Below, one piece after another: positions 46,276-52,939 of a DNA stretch of 64,000 bases. Source of the DNA: Geodermatophilus sabuli (lineage in GTDB: Bacteria > Actinomycetota > Actinomycetes > Mycobacteriales > Geodermatophilaceae); the NCBI RefSeq assembly GCF_010686765.1, contig NZ_JAAGWF010000010.1, forward strand, positions 186,001-250,000, read 5' to 3'. Positions within the stretch are counted from its first letter, which is position 1; each line of letters opens with the position of its first letter. The notes beneath the pieces were generated by a model, which had not been told where the DNA came from, did no database searches, and worked only from the letters and a program-made list of their open reading frames with translations. The position numbers were made by a program, and so were the translations under genes.

Positions 46276-47649
46276 GTGACGCACGCTCCAGACCGGGTTC
46301 GACGCCGCGGTCGACGGTCCGGTCCGGGGGACCCCCGTACCGGCCCACCGGCCACCGGCTCCGGCCGTTCCCGCCCGGTGCTGCTCCTGCGACTGTTCCT
46401 CGTCGCCCTCTTCACGGCGGGCATCGCCGCGCTGGGCGCCGGCACCGCGTCGGCCCAGCCCGAGGAGACCGGTCCCACGGAGCAGGTGCTCGGGACCCTG
46501 CAGACCAGCCGCAGCGGCCCCATCGAGGGCGTGCAGGTCACGGTCACGACGGCGGACGGCGACGAGGTCGACGAGGTCGAGACCGACGAGGAGGGCCGCT
46601 GGGCGGTCGAGGTCCCGGGTCCCGGCCAGTACGTCGTCACGATCGACGCCGACGACCTGCCCGACACCGTCGAGCTGGCGGGCGAGGACAACCGCACCGT
46701 CACCGTCGACGAGGGCCGCCGCCAGGCGGTCATCATCGGTCTCGAGGACGGCAGCCGCGGCTCCGGCGGCGGCACGGTCCGGGCCGTCCAGCTGCTGGTC
46801 GACGGCATCCGCTTCGGCCTGCTGATCGCGATGGCCGCCGTCGGCCTCTCCCTGATCTTCGGGACGACGGGGCTGACCAACTTCGCGCACGGCGAGCTGG
46901 TCACCATCGGCGCCATCGCCGCCTGGTACGTCAACGTGCAGGGCGGGGTGTCGCTGATCCCGGCGACCATCATCGCGATGGTGGTCGGTGCCGCGGTGGG
47001 CGCGATCAGCGAGCTGGGGCTCTGGCGGCCGCTGCGCCGCCGGGGCACCGGCCTGGTCGCGGCCCTGGTCATCTCGATCGGCCTGTCGCTGCTGCTGCGC
47101 TACCTGATCCAGATCGTCTACGGCGGGCGGTCCAGCCCCTACGACTTCCCGACCGGGCGGGCGGTGGACTACGGCCTGTTCACGCTGACCAACCGGTCGC
47201 TGGCCTCGATCATCATCTCGATCGTCGTCCTGGTCCTGGTCGCGGTCATGCTGCAGCGCACCAAGATCGGCAAGGCCATGCGTGCGGTCTCCGACAACCG
47301 CGACCTCGCCGCCTCGTCCGGCATCGACGTCAACCGGGTCATCCTGGTCGTGTGGATGATGGGCGGCGCCCTGGCCGCGCTCGGCGGCGTCCTCCTGGGC
47401 CTGTCGGACCAGGTGCAGTGGGACATGGGCTTCCGCCTGCTGCTGCTGATGTTCGCCGGCGTCACCCTCGGCGGCCTCGGGACCGCCTACGGCGCCCTGG
47501 TGGGCAGCCTCATCGTCGGCGTGTTCGTGCAGATGTCGACCCTCGTCATCCCGAATGACGTGAAGTACGTCGGAGGGCTCCTGCTCTTGATCGTCATCCT
47601 CGTCATCCGGCCCCAGGGCATCCTGGGCAGCCGCGCACGGATCGGCTGA
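46276..47649 (+). CDS. livH: branched-chain amino-acid ABC permease LivH with N-terminal secreted domain
   Basis: 457 residues, about 160 longer than a normal LivH. Residues 1-34 are basic, 35-60 form a signal-peptide-like helix ending ASA|QPEE, 70-155 look like a small beta-sandwich (GPIEGVQVTVTTADGDEV...TDEEGRWAVEVPGPGQYVVTID, resembling a carboxypeptidase regulatory-like domain), and a Gly-rich linker leads to the LivH permease (about 168-457: SLIFGTTGLTNFAHGELVTIGA, PQGILGSRARIG). Start GTG 46276 has GGGAGG upstream. First gene of livHMGF. The extra domain would sit outside the membrane, near where LivK docks. Interpretation of the domain is tentative; the permease call is firm. Confidence 0.9.
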   Translation: MTHAPDRVRRRGRRSGPGDPRTGPPATGSGRSRPVLLLRLFLVALFTAGIAALGAGTASAQPEETGPTEQVLGTLQTSRSGPIEGVQVTVTTADGDEVDEVETDEEGRWAVEVPGPGQYVVTIDADDLPDTVELAGEDNRTVTVDEGRRQAVIIGLEDGSRGSGGGTVRAVQLLVDGIRFGLLIAMAAVGLSLIFGTTGLTNFAHGELVTIGAIAAWYVNVQGGVSLIPATIIAMVVGAAVGAISELGLWRPLRRRGTGLVAALVISIGLSLLLRYLIQIVYGGRSSPYDFPTGRAVDYGLFTLTNRSLASIIISIVVLVLVAVMLQRTKIGKAMRAVSDNRDLAASSGIDVNRVILVVWMMGGALAALGGVLLGLSDQVQWDMGFRLLLLMFAGVTLGGLGTAYGALVGSLIVGVFVQMSTLVIPNDVKYVGGLLLLIVILVIRPQGILGSRARIG

Positions 47650-47653
47650 CCCC

Positions 47654-48652
47654 ATGGGAGACCTCCTCAACGCACTGGCCGTCGCCGGCAAGTCGGCGCT
47701 GGGCTTCCAGGCGATCTTCTTCGCGCTGCTGGCCGTCGGCATCAACGTGCAGTTCGGCTACGCCGGGCTGCTCAACTTCGGCCAGATCGCCTTCGCGCTC
47801 CTCGGCGGGTTCGGCATCGCCATCTCGGTCAGCCAGTGGGGCCTGCCCTTCTGGGTCGGCGTGCTGGTCGGGCTGCTGGCCGCCGTCGTCCTCGCCCTGC
47901 TGCTCGGCCTGCCGACGCTGCGCCTGCGTGCGGACTACCTGGCCATCGCGACCATCGCCACGGCGGAGGGCCTACGGCTGCTGTTCCGGTCGGTGTCGGC
48001 CACGCCGGTCACCAACGGCACCCGCGGCCTGTCGGCCTTCAACGGCGACTTCATCGGGCTCGCGCCCTGGGCCACGAACGAGCGGTACCGGATCCTCGGC
48101 ACCACCTGGTCCGGCGGCGAGCTGTGGGTCGCGCTGGTCGGCTGGGTGATCGTGGTGCTCTCCGGGCTGCTGATCTGGGCGCTGATGCGCAGCCCGTGGG
48201 GCCGGGTCCTGAAGTCGATCCGCGAGGACGAGGACGCCGTCCGCTCACTGGGCAAGAACGTCTACGTCTACAAGATGCAGGCCCTGGTGCTCGGCGGGAT
48301 CCTCGGTGCCCTGGGCGGCATGGTGTACGCCGTCGGCACCGGGTCGGCGGTCCCCGACCAGTACCAGAACGCCAACACGTTCCTGGCCTACGCGGCCCTG
48401 ATCCTCGGCGGTGCCGCGCGGGTGCTCGGCCCGGTCGTGGGCGCCATGATCCTGCTGTTCATCCTGCAGTTCGCCGACACCGGCCTCCGGCTGCTCATCG
48501 ACAACGGCATCATCCCCGAGGGGCTGCTGTCCTCCACGGACGTCGCGCAGATCCGCTTCGTGCTCGTCGGCGTGGGTCTCATGCTGTTGTTGATCTTCCG
48601 GCCGCAGGGCATCTTCGGTGACCGACGAGAGGTGATGCTCGATGCCCGCTGA
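47654..48652 (+). CDS. livM: branched-chain amino-acid ABC permease LivM
   Basis: 332 residues with about eight to ten transmembrane helices. NVQFGYAGLLNFGQIAFALLGGFG, LPTLRLRADYLAIATIATAEGLRL and the EAA-like loop WGRVLKSIREDEDAVRSLGKNVYVYKM identify LivM. It pairs with LivH to form the membrane channel. Begins 4 bp after livH and overlaps livG by 11 bp. Confidence 0.95.
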   Translation: MGDLLNALAVAGKSALGFQAIFFALLAVGINVQFGYAGLLNFGQIAFALLGGFGIAISVSQWGLPFWVGVLVGLLAAVVLALLLGLPTLRLRADYLAIATIATAEGLRLLFRSVSATPVTNGTRGLSAFNGDFIGLAPWATNERYRILGTTWSGGELWVALVGWVIVVLSGLLIWALMRSPWGRVLKSIREDEDAVRSLGKNVYVYKMQALVLGGILGALGGMVYAVGTGSAVPDQYQNANTFLAYAALILGGAARVLGPVVGAMILLFILQFADTGLRLLIDNGIIPEGLLSSTDVAQIRFVLVGVGLMLLLIFRPQGIFGDRREVMLDAR

Positions 48653-49688
48653 CCCGACTCCGCACGGGGCCACCGCCTCCGGTGCGGGCACGCCGCCCGA
48701 GCAGCCCCCGGCCCAGGCGTGGCAGAGCGGGGACGCCCCGCAGCGGCGGGCCCAGGCGGCACTGCGCGACCTGCCCTGGGAGGTGGGCGTCGCCAAGCCC
48801 GACGCCGCCGTCGTCGTCGACGGGGTCACCCGCACCTTCGGTGGGCTCACGGCCGTCTCGGTCGACCACCTGGAGATCCAGCGCGGCGGGATCACCGGCC
48901 TGATCGGTCCCAACGGTGCCGGCAAGACGACGCTGTTCAACCTGCTCACCGGGTTCGACCAGCCCAACACCGGCACCTGGTCGTTCAACGGCCGACCGCT
49001 CGGCAAGCTCGCCCCGCACCAGGTGGCCCGGCTCGGCGTCGTGCGCACCTTCCAGCTCACCAAGGCGCTCTCCCGGCTCACCGTGCTGCAGAACATGCTG
49101 CTCGGGGCCCAGGGGCAGCGTGGCGAGAGCTTCCTGCGCGCGCTGGTGCCCGGCACCTGGCGCACGCAGGAGAAGGAGAACACCGAGAAGGCGATGGACC
49201 TGCTCCGGCGGTTCAAGCTGGACACCAAGAAGGACGACTTCGCCGGCACCCTCTCCGGCGGTCAGCGCAAGCTGCTCGAGATGGCGCGGGCGCTCATGAG
49301 CGACCCGCAGGTGGTCATGCTCGACGAGCCGATGGCCGGGGTGAACCCGGCGCTGACGCAGAGCCTGCTCGGGCACGTCAAGGACCTCCGCGAGCAGGGC
49401 ATGACGGTGATCTTCGTCGAGCACGACATGGACGTCGTCCGCGACATCAGCGACTGGGTCGTCGTCATGGCCGCCGGCAAGATCATCGCCGAGGGTCCCC
49501 CGGAGTCGATCAGCCAGAACCAGGCCGTGGTCGACGCCTACCTCGGCGCCCACCACGACGCCCCGCTGACCGTCGAGGAGGAGGACCGCGTCCTCGCCCA
49601 GGCCGAGCAGGCGATCGCGCGCGAGGAGAACGCCGACGGCGACGTCCTCGACTCCACGCCCCACCGGAAGGGACCGACCGATGAGTGA
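48642..49688 (+). CDS. livG: branched-chain amino-acid ABC ATPase LivG
   Basis: 348 residues. An Ala/Pro-rich N-terminal extension (about 1-55) not found in typical 255-residue LivG precedes the ATPase domain: Walker A GPNGAGKT (89-96), signature LSGGQRKLLEMARAL, Walker B VVMLDEPMAGVNP, H-loop VEHDMDVV. A further 60-residue acidic C-terminal tail follows. It energises LivHM transport. Overlaps livF by 8 bp. Confidence 0.95.
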   Translation: MPADPTPHGATASGAGTPPEQPPAQAWQSGDAPQRRAQAALRDLPWEVGVAKPDAAVVVDGVTRTFGGLTAVSVDHLEIQRGGITGLIGPNGAGKTTLFNLLTGFDQPNTGTWSFNGRPLGKLAPHQVARLGVVRTFQLTKALSRLTVLQNMLLGAQGQRGESFLRALVPGTWRTQEKENTEKAMDLLRRFKLDTKKDDFAGTLSGGQRKLLEMARALMSDPQVVMLDEPMAGVNPALTQSLLGHVKDLREQGMTVIFVEHDMDVVRDISDWVVVMAAGKIIAEGPPESISQNQAVVDAYLGAHHDAPLTVEEEDRVLAQAEQAIAREENADGDVLDSTPHRKGPTDE

Positions 49689-50532
49689 CCCGCTGTTCGA
49701 GGTCGACGAGTCGGGCGAGGACCTGACCCGCGCCGACACGGCCGTCGCCGCGCAACTCTCCCCCGCCGAGAAGGCCGCCACCCGCGAGGAGCACGTCCGG
49801 CTCGCCGAGGGTGCCCTCGTTCGGGGCGACGACCTCGTCGCCGGCTACGTGCCCGGGGTCAACATCCTCCGCGGCTGCGACTTCTACCTGCAGGACGGCG
49901 AGCTCGTCGGGATCATCGGGCCGAACGGGGCGGGCAAGTCCACCCTGCTCAAGACGCTGTTCGGGCTGATCCCCGTGCGGTCGGGCTCGGTGACCCTGCG
50001 CGGGGAGGACATCACCTCCGCCCCCGCCCACCGGCTGGTGTCCCTGGGCGTCGGCTACGTCCCCCAGAACAACAACGTGTTCCCCTCGCTCACCATCGAG
50101 GAGAACATGCAGATGGGCGTCTACCTGCGGCCGAAGACGTTCAAGGAGCGCTTCGACTACGTCATCGACCTCTTCCCGCTGCTCGGCGAGCGGCGCAAGG
50201 GGAAGGCCGGCGCCCTGTCCGGTGGCGAGCGGCAGATGGTCGCGATGGGCCGGGCACTGATGATGGACCCGTCGGTACTCCTGCTCGACGAGCCCTCGGC
50301 CGGCCTCTCCCCCGCCTACCAGGACGAGGTGTTCATCCGCTGCCGGCGGATCAACGCCACCGGCGTCTCGATCATCATGGTCGAGCAGAACGCCCGCCGC
50401 TGCCTGCAGATCTGCGACCGCGGCTACGTGCTCGACCAGGGCCGCAACGCCTACACCGACACCGGTGAGTCGCTCATGCACGACCCCAAGGTCATCGAGC
50501 TCTACCTCGGGACGCTCGCCAAGACGACCTGA
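49681..50532 (+). CDS. livF: branched-chain amino-acid ABC ATPase LivF
   Basis: 283 residues. An acidic N-terminal extension (about 1-48) precedes the ATPase core: Walker A GPNGAGKS (80-87), GYVPQNNNVFPSLTIEENM, signature LSGGERQMVAMGRAL, Walker B LLLDEPSAGLSP, H-loop-equivalent VEQNARR. Forms the ATPase heterodimer with LivG. Last gene of the plus-strand liv operon; a 17-bp hairpin follows. Confidence 0.95.
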   Translation: MSDPLFEVDESGEDLTRADTAVAAQLSPAEKAATREEHVRLAEGALVRGDDLVAGYVPGVNILRGCDFYLQDGELVGIIGPNGAGKSTLLKTLFGLIPVRSGSVTLRGEDITSAPAHRLVSLGVGYVPQNNNVFPSLTIEENMQMGVYLRPKTFKERFDYVIDLFPLLGERRKGKAGALSGGERQMVAMGRALMMDPSVLLLDEPSAGLSPAYQDEVFIRCRRINATGVSIIMVEQNARRCLQICDRGYVLDQGRNAYTDTGESLMHDPKVIELYLGTLAKTT

Positions 50533-50548
50533 GCCCCTCGGGACGCCG

Positions 50549-50588
50549 CGACGGCGCCGCCACCCTCCCGTGGGTGGCGGCGCCGTCG
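50549..50588 (+). terminator. strong hairpin terminator after livF
   Basis: 17-bp perfect stem (50549-50565 with 50572-50588) and loop of 6 nt, 16 bp after the livF stop. The remaining 50589-50711 shows no gene. Confidence 0.75.
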
Positions 50589-50711
50589 TCGTTGCCGGAG
50601 GGAGTCGCTCACACCCCCCGGTCGCCCGCCCCGGAGCACCCCTCGTCCGCGGGGGCCCGCCGACCGGCCGCCCCCGACCGCACCGGCAGGGCCGGCCTGC
50701 CCGGGACGCGA

Positions 50712-50747
50712 CAGTGGCCCGGCACCGTCGCCGGTGCCGGGCCACTG
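50712..50747 (-). terminator. strong hairpin terminator after livK
   Basis: 16-bp perfect stem (50712-50727 with 50732-50747) and TCGC-type loop, 65 bp past the livK stop on the minus strand. With the livF hairpin it insulates the two convergent liv transcripts. Confidence 0.7.
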
Positions 50748-50812
50748 CCCTGCCAACTCAGTGCTGTGGGTCCACAGCCTCTCGGCGCTGCAGCATCACA
50801 GCGCCTCGTACC

Positions 50813-52147
50813 TCAGCGCTGCGGGCCGATGCCCTGGTCGTTGAGGCCCTGCAGGATCCGAGAGGACTCCTCGAACCCGATGACGACGATCGCGTCGGGG
50901 TTGAACTCCACCATCTGCTGGACCTCGGCGTCGAAGTTCGCCGCCTGCGGGTCGTAGGTGATGCTCACGATGTCGTCCTCGGAGAGGCCGGCGTCGACGA
51001 GGTTGTTCAGGGTGTTCTCCGCGAGGCCCGTGCCGTACGGGTCGTTCAGGGCCAGGATCCCCACGGTGTTGTTGCCGTCGGCGATGATCAGGTCGGCCAG
51101 CGCGCGGGCCTGCAGCGTGTCCGGGGGCGCGGTGCGGAAGTACAGCCCGTTGTCGTTGTAGGCGGTGAACTGGTCCGACGTGTTCGCCGGCGAGAACTGC
51201 ATGACACCGGCGCCGGTGATGGCGTCGATGACCGTGAGGCTCACGCCGGAGGACGCCGCGCCGATGATCGCGTTGACGCCCGACTGCAGCAGGCGGTCCA
51301 CGGTCTGGGTGGCGGTGTCGGTCGAGGCGTCACCGGAGTCACCCTCGACCAGCTGGACCGGGGCGCCCAGCACGCCGCCCGCGGCGTTGATGTCGTTGAC
51401 GGCCAGCTTCGCGCCGGCCACCTCGGGCGGGCCGAGGAAGGCCAGGTTGCCGGTCAGCGGCAGCAGCGTGCCGATCACCAGCGGGCCGCCGGTCGCGCCG
51501 GGCGGCGCGTACGCCGGGCCCTCGTCGGACGTGGCGCCCGACTCGTCGCCGGCCAGGACGTACTCGGTGGCGTCGTTGTCGAGGGCGTTGTCGTCGCCGA
51601 ACTGCAGGAGACCGAAGCTCGCCTGGGCCGGCTCACCGGCATCGGCGAAGCTCAGCGGACCGGAGATGCCGTCGTAGTCGACGTTCCCGCCGCTGTTGAT
51701 GAGCTCCAGGCAGGCGGCGAAGTCGGTGCAGGTGTCTCCGCCGGTGGTGATGCCGTTGACGTACGCCTTGAAGACGTTGGCGTCGTTGGTCCCGGCCGCC
51801 TGCGCCGCGAGCGCGGTGATGATGATCGCGTCGTAGGTCTCACCGGCGTAGTTGTAGTCCTGCAGCGCCGGGTCGATCTCCAGGAGGCGGTCGGTGAAGT
51901 CCGACCCGAGCTCGGTGAGGGGCGTGGTGCCCTTCATCCCGGCCAGGGCGCCGTTCTCGGTGAAGTCCTCACCGAGGGCGTTGCCCATGTTGCCGTCGGT
52001 GCCGTAGATGTTGACCTGCTTCTCGCCACCGCCACCGCCGTCGCCCTCGGCGGCGGCCCCTTCGTCGTCGCCACCGCCGCATGCGGTGAGGACGAGCAGG
52101 GCCGCGGCCGACACGGCGGCGCTCCGCGCGAGGATGCCAGTGCGCAT
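50813..52147 (-). CDS. livK: branched-chain amino-acid ABC substrate-binding lipoprotein LivK, apparently circularly permuted
   Basis: 444 residues from ATG 52147, with GGGAG 8 bp upstream and lipobox LTAC (Cys23). The order of segments is unusual. Residues 43-200 (VNIYGTDGNMGNALGEDF ... DPALQDYNYAGETYDAIIITALAAQ ... GISGPLSFADAGEP ... DATEYVLAG) match what is normally the C-terminal portion of a Peripla_BP_6 protein. A linker rich in Gly/Ser/Pro/Ala (about 201-221) follows, and residues 222-444 (PLVIGTLLPLTGNLAFLGPPEVAGAKLAVNDIN ... GAASSGVS ... VGILALNDPYG ... AIVVIGFEESSRILQGLNDQ) are the normal N-terminal portion. The frame is intact throughout and total length is normal, so the protein should fold and bind ligand. 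Convergent with livF. Confidence 0.9.
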   Translation of the reverse strand: MRTGILARSAAVSAAALLVLTACGGGDDEGAAAEGDGGGGGEKQVNIYGTDGNMGNALGEDFTENGALAGMKGTTPLTELGSDFTDRLLEIDPALQDYNYAGETYDAIIITALAAQAAGTNDANVFKAYVNGITTGGDTCTDFAACLELINSGGNVDYDGISGPLSFADAGEPAQASFGLLQFGDDNALDNDATEYVLAGDESGATSDEGPAYAPPGATGGPLVIGTLLPLTGNLAFLGPPEVAGAKLAVNDINAAGGVLGAPVQLVEGDSGDASTDTATQTVDRLLQSGVNAIIGAASSGVSLTVIDAITGAGVMQFSPANTSDQFTAYNDNGLYFRTAPPDTLQARALADLIIADGNNTVGILALNDPYGTGLAENTLNNLVDAGLSEDDIVSITYDPQAANFDAEVQQMVEFNPDAIVVIGFEESSRILQGLNDQGIGPQR

Positions 52148-52333
52148 CAAGCAACTCCCACTGTTTCGGTCGTGCACGCGGTCAACCCAGGCGGGCTGAC
52201 CCGATCAGTGGGGGGAAGGTAACCGCTGGGATCGGGCCCCGAAGAGGGGTCGACCGGACCGTGATGGGGTTGTGACCTCCAACGACGGACTTCAGCACAA
52301 CGGGCGACAGAACTGACTCCGGCGGGAGTGGCC

Positions 52334-52939
52334 TCACCCTCGGTCCGGAGGCACCTCCGCCGCGGCCTCCGGCTGGAGGATCCGCTGCGCCAGCGCCTTC
52401 ATCGACGTCCGCTCGTTCATCGCCGACCGCTGGATCCAGCGGAACGCCTCGGCCTCGGTCATGCCCTGGTCGGCCATGAGCCGGCCCTTCGCCTGCTCGA
52501 CGACCTTGCGGGTCTCCAGCCGCTCCTCGAGGGTGCGGACCTCGCCGTCCAGAGCGGTCATCTCGGCGAACCGCGCTCGGGCCACCTCGATGGCCGGCAC
52601 CAGATCGTTCTTGGAGAAGGGCTTCACGAGGTAGGCCATGGCGCCCGCGTCCCGTGCCCGCTCGACCAGCTCGCGCTGGCTGAAGGCGGTCAGGACGATC
52701 ACCGGGGCGATCCGGGAGCCGGCGATCTGCTCGGCGGCCGACAGCCCGTCGAGGACCGGCATCTGGATGTCCAGCACCACCAGGTCCGGCCGTAGCTCCG
52801 TCGCCCGGTCCACGGCCTGCTGCCCGTCGCCGACCTCGGCCACGACGGTGTACCCCTCCTCCTCCAGCATCTCCTTGAGGTCGAGGCGGATCAGCGCCTC
52901 GTCCTCGGCGATGAGGACCCGGATCGTCTCGGTGCTCAC
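52334..52939 (-). CDS. ANTAR-domain response regulator, PdtaR-like
   Basis: 201 residues from GTG 52939. Receiver domain with acidic pair E12/D13, phospho-acceptor Asp57 (VVLDIQMPVLDG), Thr84 and Lys106 (LVKPFSK), then a helix and the RNA-binding ANTAR domain (about 137-192: EERLETRKVVEQAKGRLMADQGMTEAEAFRWIQRSAM). Such regulators bind paired hexaloop RNA hairpins and antiterminate transcripts. Mycobacterial Rv1626 (PdtaR) occupies the same neighbourhood near polA and tesB. Its histidine kinase is not in this window. Confidence 0.95.
   Translation of the reverse strand: MSTETIRVLIAEDEALIRLDLKEMLEEEGYTVVAEVGDGQQAVDRATELRPDLVVLDIQMPVLDGLSAAEQIAGSRIAPVIVLTAFSQRELVERARDAGAMAYLVKPFSKNDLVPAIEVARARFAEMTALDGEVRTLEERLETRKVVEQAKGRLMADQGMTEAEAFRWIQRSAMNERTSMKALAQRILQPEAAAEVPPDRG

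What the first reader, a model, noticed from the sequence alone, without database searches (positions are those of the whole stretch)
50813..52147. Circularly permuted branched-chain amino-acid binding protein (LivK)
Seen: an intact 444-codon frame with signal peptide and lipobox in which the segment order is swapped. Residues 43-200 (starting VNIYGTDGNMGN and including DYNYAGETYDAIIITALAAQ and GPLSFADAGEP) are the usual C-terminal portion of a Peripla_BP_6 protein. Residues 222-444 start with the usual mature N-terminus (PLVIGTLLPLTGNLAFLGPPEVAGAKLAV) and end at SSRILQGLNDQGIGPQR. Joining the end (GIGPQR) to residue 43 (KQVNIYGTDG) restores the normal order without a gap, and a 20-residue Gly/Ser/Pro/Ala linker joins the old C- and N-termini. 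Known: natural family members have the other order. Inference: a duplication-and-trim or domain-swap event made a true circular permutant that is still exported. I know of no description of this for LivK.
Basis: partly seen in the sequence, partly recalled or inferred. Interest (0 to 1): 0.85.

Follow-up and report, generated by a model that had tools for sequence, protein, structure and literature searches.

The report
Repeatedly circularly permuted amino-acid-binding lipoprotein
A nutrient-catching lipoprotein of soil actinobacteria has its two halves in swapped order, and the same kind of rearrangement seems to have happened about five separate times in its relatives, a natural repeated experiment in protein rearrangement.

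Summary
On the minus strand (50816-52147) lies a 444-residue lipoprotein whose Peripla_BP_6/LivK halves are swapped; rejoining them extends the Pfam match from profile 2-217 to 2-310 of 343. It is no misassembly: 23 of 24 same-genus genomes share the full-length order, as do 44 of 50 loci from named records. The gene lies tail-to-tail with livHMGF; relatives of ordinary order (N part mostly 50-66% identical) occupy the same kind of locus. The permuted state needs five changes on trees of the protein and of the transporter genes; one clade is rejected for all permuted proteins and for each breakpoint class. Only two breakpoint loops are seen, used three and two times. One genus holds both orders. 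Tandem copies (L194) and a fused double (L184) are the steps expected for permutation by duplication. Untested: structure (prediction switched off) and ligand binding. A natural permuted Type I binding protein is known (T. pallidum MglB-2) with another breakpoint. New variant of a known kind.

The parts
50816..52147 (-). Permuted LivK-type substrate-binding lipoprotein, 444 aa (stop codon 50813-50815)
   Evidence: Intact ORF; full-length relatives of the same order in 23 of 24 same-genus genomes
52082..52147 (-). Signal peptide, residues 1-22, ending in lipobox LTA-C
   Evidence: Sequence; lipobox pattern in 69 of 69 A1 proteins
52079..52081 (-). Lipobox Cys23, predicted lipid anchor
   Evidence: Sequence
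52022..52078 (-). Gly/Glu/Asp-rich tether, residues 24-42
   Evidence: Sequence
51548..52021 (-). Segment that is C-terminal in ordinary relatives, residues 43-200
   Evidence: Residues 46-199 are 50% identical to the C-terminal part of L078; Pfam continuity after rejoining
51989..51997 (-). Asp51-Gly52-Asn53, just after the new N-terminus; Asp aligns with the Asp of 4gnr_A
   Evidence: Invariant in 37 of 37 class A proteins; alignment
51485..51547 (-). Linker joining old C- and N-termini, residues 201-221
   Evidence: comparison with tails and leaders of ordinary relatives
50816..51484 (-). Segment that is N-terminal in ordinary relatives, residues 222-444; new C-terminus GIGPQR
   Evidence: Peripla_BP_6 profile 2-217
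46276..47649 (+). livH permease with an N-terminal CarboxypepD_reg domain
   Evidence: Pfam BPD_transp_2 and PF13620
47654..48652 (+). livM permease
   Evidence: Pfam BPD_transp_2
48642..49688 (+). livG ATPase
   Evidence: Pfam ABC_tran and BCA_ABC_TP_C
49681..50532 (+). livF ATPase
   Evidence: Pfam ABC_tran
52334..52939 (-). ANTAR response regulator, conserved upstream neighbour
   Evidence: Pfam Response_reg and ANTAR; present on the same strand in 44 of 44 named permuted loci

Best explanation
This is most likely a working, lipid-anchored substrate-binding protein of a LivHMGF-type amino-acid importer, in which the ordinary LivK gene was circularly permuted in place. Most likely route: tandem duplication of livK; fusion of copy 1's C-terminus to copy 2 (which lost its signal peptide); deletion of the first N-part and the last C-part. 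The retained signal peptide and lipobox now lead into the old C-terminal part. Shown: order, conservation, shared kind of locus, linker make-up, five changes of state on the trees, two breakpoint loops, tandem and fused-double relatives. Inferred: that the chain folds into the usual two-lobed clamp; that it binds an amino acid between the lobes and hands it to LivH/LivM; that the lipid tether moved from lobe 1 to lobe 2; that the changes of state are mostly gains; the steps of the route.
For: Order by Pfam, PDB and ordinary relatives. Conservation. Third codon positions differ most, and 80-90% of residues are kept in five relatives compared. Synteny: LivF convergent with the gene in 40 of 44 named permuted loci, the other 4 (contig-end or short loci) showing no Liv gene; convergent too in ordinary-order L078, L206, L208, L209, L211, L212 and in 10 ordinary plus 5 permuted loci of one genus. 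Trees: 5 changes on 68 rows (starred branches force 5; none of 200 bootstrap trees has one), 87 rows (force 5) and LivHMGF on 38 rows (force 5); AU p 9.7e-7 all permuted, 8.8e-6 class A, 0.0015 class B. Linkers resemble an ordinary tail and, in four of the five lineages, end like an ordinary leader, such as GDGV. Fused double L184, tandem L194.
Against: No structure: prediction was never accepted (nine busy replies, then switched off). No ligand data. Five changes could include reversals. Single-half trees give 6 changes each, but starred branches force only 4 (N part) and 2 (C part); in the 104-row quick tree they force only 4. No remnants of deleted copies at E<=0.01 within 1.5 kb. The fused double lies on a long branch and is not a direct ancestor. 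No liv genes were found in the 19.5 kb around one f16 copy (L205), and in B1 (L200, L201) the gene is divergent from the liv genes. At least 5 genomes of the window's family lack a match at E<=1e-20, and 1 of 24 of its genus lacks the gene. The lipobox pattern was found in only 9 of 12 B2 proteins.
Confidence: 0.85

Rival explanations
1. One ancient permutation, then several reversals to the ordinary order and some horizontal transfer, explains the scatter.
For: On an unrooted tree changes can be gains or losses; class A and class B breakpoints lie only about 20-25 residues apart.
Against: AU tests reject one clade for all permuted rows, for class A and for class B; the transporter-gene tree shows five changes too; a reversal would have to remake ordinary termini and leader.
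Confidence: 0.12
2. Fission into two genes and fusion in the other order, not duplication, made the permutants.
For: General model described in PMC3320104 (passages). I did not search specifically for split-gene relatives.
Against: Tandem copies and a fused double exist; linkers combine what looks like old tail and leader, as a tail-to-head fusion predicts.
Confidence: 0.12
3. The halves come from different LivK paralogues (domain shuffling).
For: Both halves occur in many LivK proteins; congruence of the two half-trees was not tested directly.
Against: N-part and C-part trees each give few changes, 6 and 6 against shuffled means of about 21, and ordinary relatives match both halves in one gene at the same kind of locus.
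Confidence: 0.03
4. Assembly artefact at the junction.
For: The window lies in a draft of 122 contigs.
Against: Same order in many assemblies, including single-contig genomes.
Confidence: 0.01

Closest known systems
LivK / Peripla_BP_6 branched-chain amino-acid-binding proteins (e.g. 4gnr, 3ipc, 1z15 chains)
   Same: Both halves homologous, lipoprotein, next to livHMGF, Asp aligned with the Asp of 4gnr_A
   Different: Segment order swapped; new termini in the region that I recall as lobe 2; linker between old termini
Treponema pallidum Tp0684 (MglB-2), 'Type Ic / Cluster Bc' (PMC4990184, passages read)
   Same: Natural circular permutation of a tethered Type I ABC binding protein that still binds its ligand
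   Different: Sugar binder; there the first N-lobe strands moved to the C-terminus, and the permuted part was poorly conserved. Here the breakpoints lie elsewhere, and both parts keep clear identity to ordinary relatives (N part mostly 50-66%; C part about 31-57%)
Naturally permuted C5 DNA methyltransferases (PMC5944983, passages read)
   Same: Permutation thought by the authors to have occurred several times, at one kind of site, with duplication and truncation proposed
   Different: Unrelated enzymes; no replacement of an orthologue at a conserved locus was described in the passages read

Membership tests
Peripla_BP_6 / LivK | Both parts of the domain homologous to the family | tested here: met
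   118.5 bits as is, 130.6 bits rejoined, cut-off 31.7
Peripla_BP_6 / LivK | Ordinary N-to-C order of segments | tested here: not met
   Profile 2-217 lies at residues 223-442; the rest precedes it
Peripla_BP_6 / LivK | Exported lipoprotein | tested here: met
   Signal peptide and lipobox by sequence pattern only
Peripla_BP_6 / LivK | Partner LivHMGF importer genes nearby | tested here: met
   Pfam of neighbours; synteny
Peripla_BP_6 / LivK | Acidic residue at the ammonium site of amino-acid binders (role recalled) | tested here: met
   Asp51 invariant in 37 of 37, aligned with Asp of 4gnr_A; its role was not tested
Peripla_BP_6 / LivK | Binds a branched-chain or other amino acid | not testable with these tools
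   No assay
Naturally circularly permuted proteins | Relatives whose halves align only after swapping, old termini joined by a linker | tested here: met
Naturally circularly permuted proteins | Same fold despite permutation | not tested
   Structure prediction not accepted
Type Ic / Cluster Bc (TpMglB-2-like) | First strands of the N lobe moved to the C-terminus | tested here: not met
   By sequence only: here about 220 residues form the new C-terminal part; compared with passages of PMC4990184
Permutation by duplication | Fused tandem duplicate among relatives | tested here: met
   L184: NT-CT-NT-CT in one frame, about 792 residues from the likely Met; not a direct ancestor

The most novel reading that the evidence does not exclude
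In one orthologous LivK locus of Actinomycetota, circular permutation by tandem duplication has been fixed at least five times at only two adjacent loops, because moving the lipid anchor from one lobe of the clamp to the other is advantageous for docking on LivHM: a natural, replicated case of convergent evolution of protein topology.
Probability: 0.35. Interest if true: 0.85.

Novelty: new variant of a known kind. Interest (0 to 1): 0.72.

Why it matters
Natural circular permutations are often known only as old, finished events (recalled). Here one orthologous locus seems to hold five changes, the same two breakpoints used repeatedly, both orders within one genus, tandem copies, and a fused double. 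That makes the duplication route, the choice of breakpoint and the functional cost or gain of permutation directly testable. It also shows that a linear profile reports such a protein as half-matched.

Tried and rejected
Misassembly: rejected by many assemblies. Single origin: tested by AU and rejected. Domain shuffling: the half-trees do not favour it, though their congruence was not tested directly. Remnants of deleted copies: no hit at E<=0.01 in flanks of 1.5 kb (234 flank sequences made, those over 60 bases searched). An apparent tandem in G450 (match across 3 stops) was dropped: only one copy shows in the fetched 19.5 kb (L211). Repeats in 50300-52600: the direct repeats found are 14-32 nt and imperfect; none was seen to explain the junction. 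Promoter and terminator scans found nothing.

Literature: ten searches. In the listings (titles and starts of abstracts; several were cut to the first 10-25 papers) I saw no paper describing a permuted LivK/Peripla_BP_6 protein. CIRPIN (PMC12667903) has no occurrence of periplasmic, substrate-binding, branched-chain, ABC transporter or lipoprotein. Only open-licence PMC papers are held, so this is weak evidence of absence.

Rows dropped: 36 of 104 rows (long branches and near-duplicates) before the 68-row tree; the 104 rows were themselves a choice, with most near-identical family rows and a few others left out, and the two halves of L184 added as ordinary rows. Identical rows were counted once, and ORFs with N-part score under 100 or C-part under 40 bits were left out. 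The script labelled L184 as class B; I count it apart as the fused double. In one search one row (L035) was given class A by default; its order is permuted.

Full report
WHAT IS THERE. The gene is on the minus strand of the window: ATG at 52147, coding to 50816, stop at 50813-50815, 444 residues. Residues 1-22 are a signal peptide ending in a lipobox (LTA-C23). Residues 24-42 are a Gly/Asp/Glu tether. Residues 43-200 correspond to the C-terminal part of a LivK-type protein, 201-221 are a linker, and 222-444 correspond to the N-terminal part. Peripla_BP_6 matches only residues 223-442, profile 2-217 of 343 (118.5 bits). Swapping the halves back gives one continuous match to profile 2-310 (130.6 bits), and ANF_receptor then covers 6-350 of 353. 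The PDB chain 4gnr_A then aligns over 10-301. A profile of 37 permuted proteins finds 110 PDB sequences at E<=1e-5; in the 60 listed, the best stretch always lies within profile positions 203-442, so no permuted member was seen among those solved structures. In the window's genome 6 of 8 Peripla_BP_6 matches run from profile 1-3 to 290-339; this one stops at 218, and one is weak, 11-253.

NOT AN ARTEFACT. Among 41 genomes, the window's own and 23 of 24 same-genus genomes have a full-length match in this order (75-90% identity in the 23); G021 has only distant matches; one genome of another family, G039, has the same order at 45%. In the collection of named genomes, 44 of 50 loci have the permuted order: 43 titled Geodermatophilus, Blastococcus, Klenkia or Modestobacter and one titled Bacillus sp. 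AZ43. Four others (one Acidimicrobiales MAG, three Bifidobacterium) have the ordinary order, and two match only part of the N part. In a draw of 298 genomes of the order, 46 genomes coded f1 (the window's family) have the match and at least 5 f1 genomes have none at E<=1e-20, so it is widespread, not universal. Against close relatives (L006, L007, L008) third-position differences (81-99) exceed first and second ones (32-38 and 23-24), as expected for a protein under constraint.

SAME LOCUS. The gene lies tail-to-tail with livHMGF (46276-50532, plus strand) and beside an ANTAR response-regulator gene (52334-52939, minus). Of the 44 named permuted loci, 44 have the ANTAR gene on the same strand, 40 show LivF on the opposite strand and 39 show all four liv genes; the four without any Liv gene (L039, L045, L056, L067) are short or contig-end loci. 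The convergent layout also holds for ordinary-order L078, L206, L208, L209, L211 and L212, and for permuted L197-L199 and L202-L204; the ANTAR neighbour was found in only some of these (L197, L199, L206, L208, L211). Exceptions: L200 and L201 are divergent from liv genes, the Bifidobacterium loci have SBP and liv on one strand, and L205, L207 (short) and L210 show no liv genes.

FAMILY AND BREAKPOINTS. Further relatives came from 298 (order), 394 (class) and 396 (phylum) genomes, with 125, 151 and 70 matching at E<=1e-20, from 345 genomes of another class, 102 matching at E<=1e-40, and from 35 genomes of family f68, 4 matching at E<=1e-60, of which 2 are permuted and 2 ordinary. From the 196 loci then held I extracted 158 distinct proteins over the cut-offs: 76 permuted at breakpoint A (as in the window), 14 at breakpoint B, 67 in ordinary order, and one fused double (corrected). 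Breakpoint A lies in the loop between ...QGIGP and xYGTDGN; breakpoint B about 20-25 residues further on, between ...DGNMGNALGENFDAG and xLEGMKGT. In 102 distinct permuted proteins the linker between profile envelopes is 31-50 residues; a lipobox pattern was found in 69 of 69 A1, 6 of 6 A2, 13 of 13 A3, 2 of 2 B1, 9 of 12 B2 and 72 of 76 ordinary proteins. Linkers contain a piece like an ordinary C-tail (IDDSLTEFREAEI in L133 against IDDSLTEFRLAEL in ordinary L144) and, in lineages A2, A3, B1 and B2, often the end of an ordinary leader (GDGV or similar). This is what fusion of a whole copy to a second copy without signal peptide would leave.

HOW OFTEN. With the permuted proteins put back into ordinary order for alignment, a 68-row careful tree (16 A, 10 B, 42 ordinary) needs 5 changes between permuted and ordinary; starred branches force 5 and none of 200 bootstrap trees has the ordinary rows as one side. 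A 104-row quick tree also needs 5, with at least 4 forced; an 87-row tree with more of one genus needs 5, with 5 forced. AU tests reject one clade for all permuted rows (p 9.7e-7) and class A (8.8e-6), and class B (0.0015). Trees of each half alone need 6 changes each, but starred branches force only 4 and 2. A separate tree of LivH, LivM, LivG and LivF from 38 loci needs 5 changes, 5 forced; one row there (L236) is a fragment on a very long branch and L203 is long. The five lineages: A1 (the window's family with f16 and f13 genomes; its union has support of only 83/73), A2 (f39, f49), A3 (genus g113), B1 (f68 g278) and B2 (f81, f122 and others). Reversal cannot be excluded, but gains are simplest because the distant LivK proteins seen are in ordinary order. 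If breakpoints were uniform over 380 positions, five events falling in two 10-residue windows would have probability about 0.001; over 10 equal loops about 0.014. This is illustrative, since viable loops are unknown.

BOTH ORDERS IN ONE GENUS. Of 176 genomes of genus g113, 60 matched at E<=1e-60: 17 span both halves in permuted order (one cut by a contig end) and 43 match only the N part at that threshold. I fetched 10 of those 43 and all 10 have the ordinary order; 5 of the 17 were fetched with flanks; all 15 have the SBP gene convergent with LivF. In the 87-row tree 10 permuted g113 rows form one group (99*) inside a 20-row g113 group with 10 ordinary rows (99*).

INTERMEDIATES. L194 has two ordinary copies about 1.1 kb apart. 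L184, in genome G1303, is an open frame of 989 codons, about 792 residues from the likely Met, with one signal peptide and the order N-C-N-C, and a third copy lies next to it (L210). These are the steps that permutation by duplication predicts (PMC3320104, passages read). They are relatives, not ancestors. No decayed remnants were found beside permuted genes.

HOW IT PROBABLY WORKS. By homology the two lobes should close on an amino acid; Asp51 in the moved segment is invariant in 37 of 37 class A proteins and aligns with the Asp of 4gnr_A. That this position binds the ligand's ammonium group is recalled, not shown here. By the recalled topology of LIV-binding protein, both breakpoints lie in lobe 2, so the lipid tether would move from lobe 1 to lobe 2. 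For T. pallidum MglB-2 the authors also raise tethering as a possible reason (PMC4990184, passages). The fold itself was not modelled because prediction was not accepted.

COMPARISON AND NOVELTY. T. pallidum MglB-2 is the nearest precedent found: a permuted Type I binding protein that binds glucose, with a different breakpoint. Several occurrences of permutation, with duplication and truncation proposed, have been argued for C5 DNA methyltransferases (PMC5944983, passages). What seems new is repeated in-place permutation of one transporter-binding orthologue at two shared breakpoints, with both orders in one genus and a fused double in the family. In the listings of ten searches of the held library I saw no description of it, but that library is partial. 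I file it as a new variant of a known kind.

Noticed in passing
window 46276-47649 (+): LivH carries an N-terminal extension with a CarboxypepD_reg domain (residues 71-149 of 457) before the permease domain; possibly an extracytoplasmic part that meets the binding protein.
   Followed up: no
L184 / L210 (G1303:C20): Fused double binding protein (N-C-N-C, one signal peptide, about 792 residues from the likely Met) with a further ordinary copy beside it; no liv genes found on the 15 kb fetched.
   Followed up: partly
L038: Record titled Bacillus sp. AZ43 (marked UNVERIFIED_ORG) holds the permuted gene at 85% identity with the same gene order as Geodermatophilaceae; probably a mislabelled record.
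   Followed up: no
window 50535-50602 and 50712-50747: Two inverted repeats (31-nt arms 81% complementary; 16-nt arms 100%) between the convergent livF and binding-protein genes, perhaps shared terminators; the terminator scan, which asks for a T run, found none.
   Followed up: no
L205 (G203), family f16: Permuted binding protein about 49% identical to the window's with no liv genes found in the 19.5 kb fetched; the partner transporter is unknown.
   Followed up: no
L186 (G149) and G101, G087, G280: Four genomes of the same family hold a second, more diverged permuted copy (63-68% identical).
   Followed up: no
L188 and L189 (G251): One genome holds both a permuted (45%) and an ordinary-order (59% in the N part) relative.
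   Followed up: no
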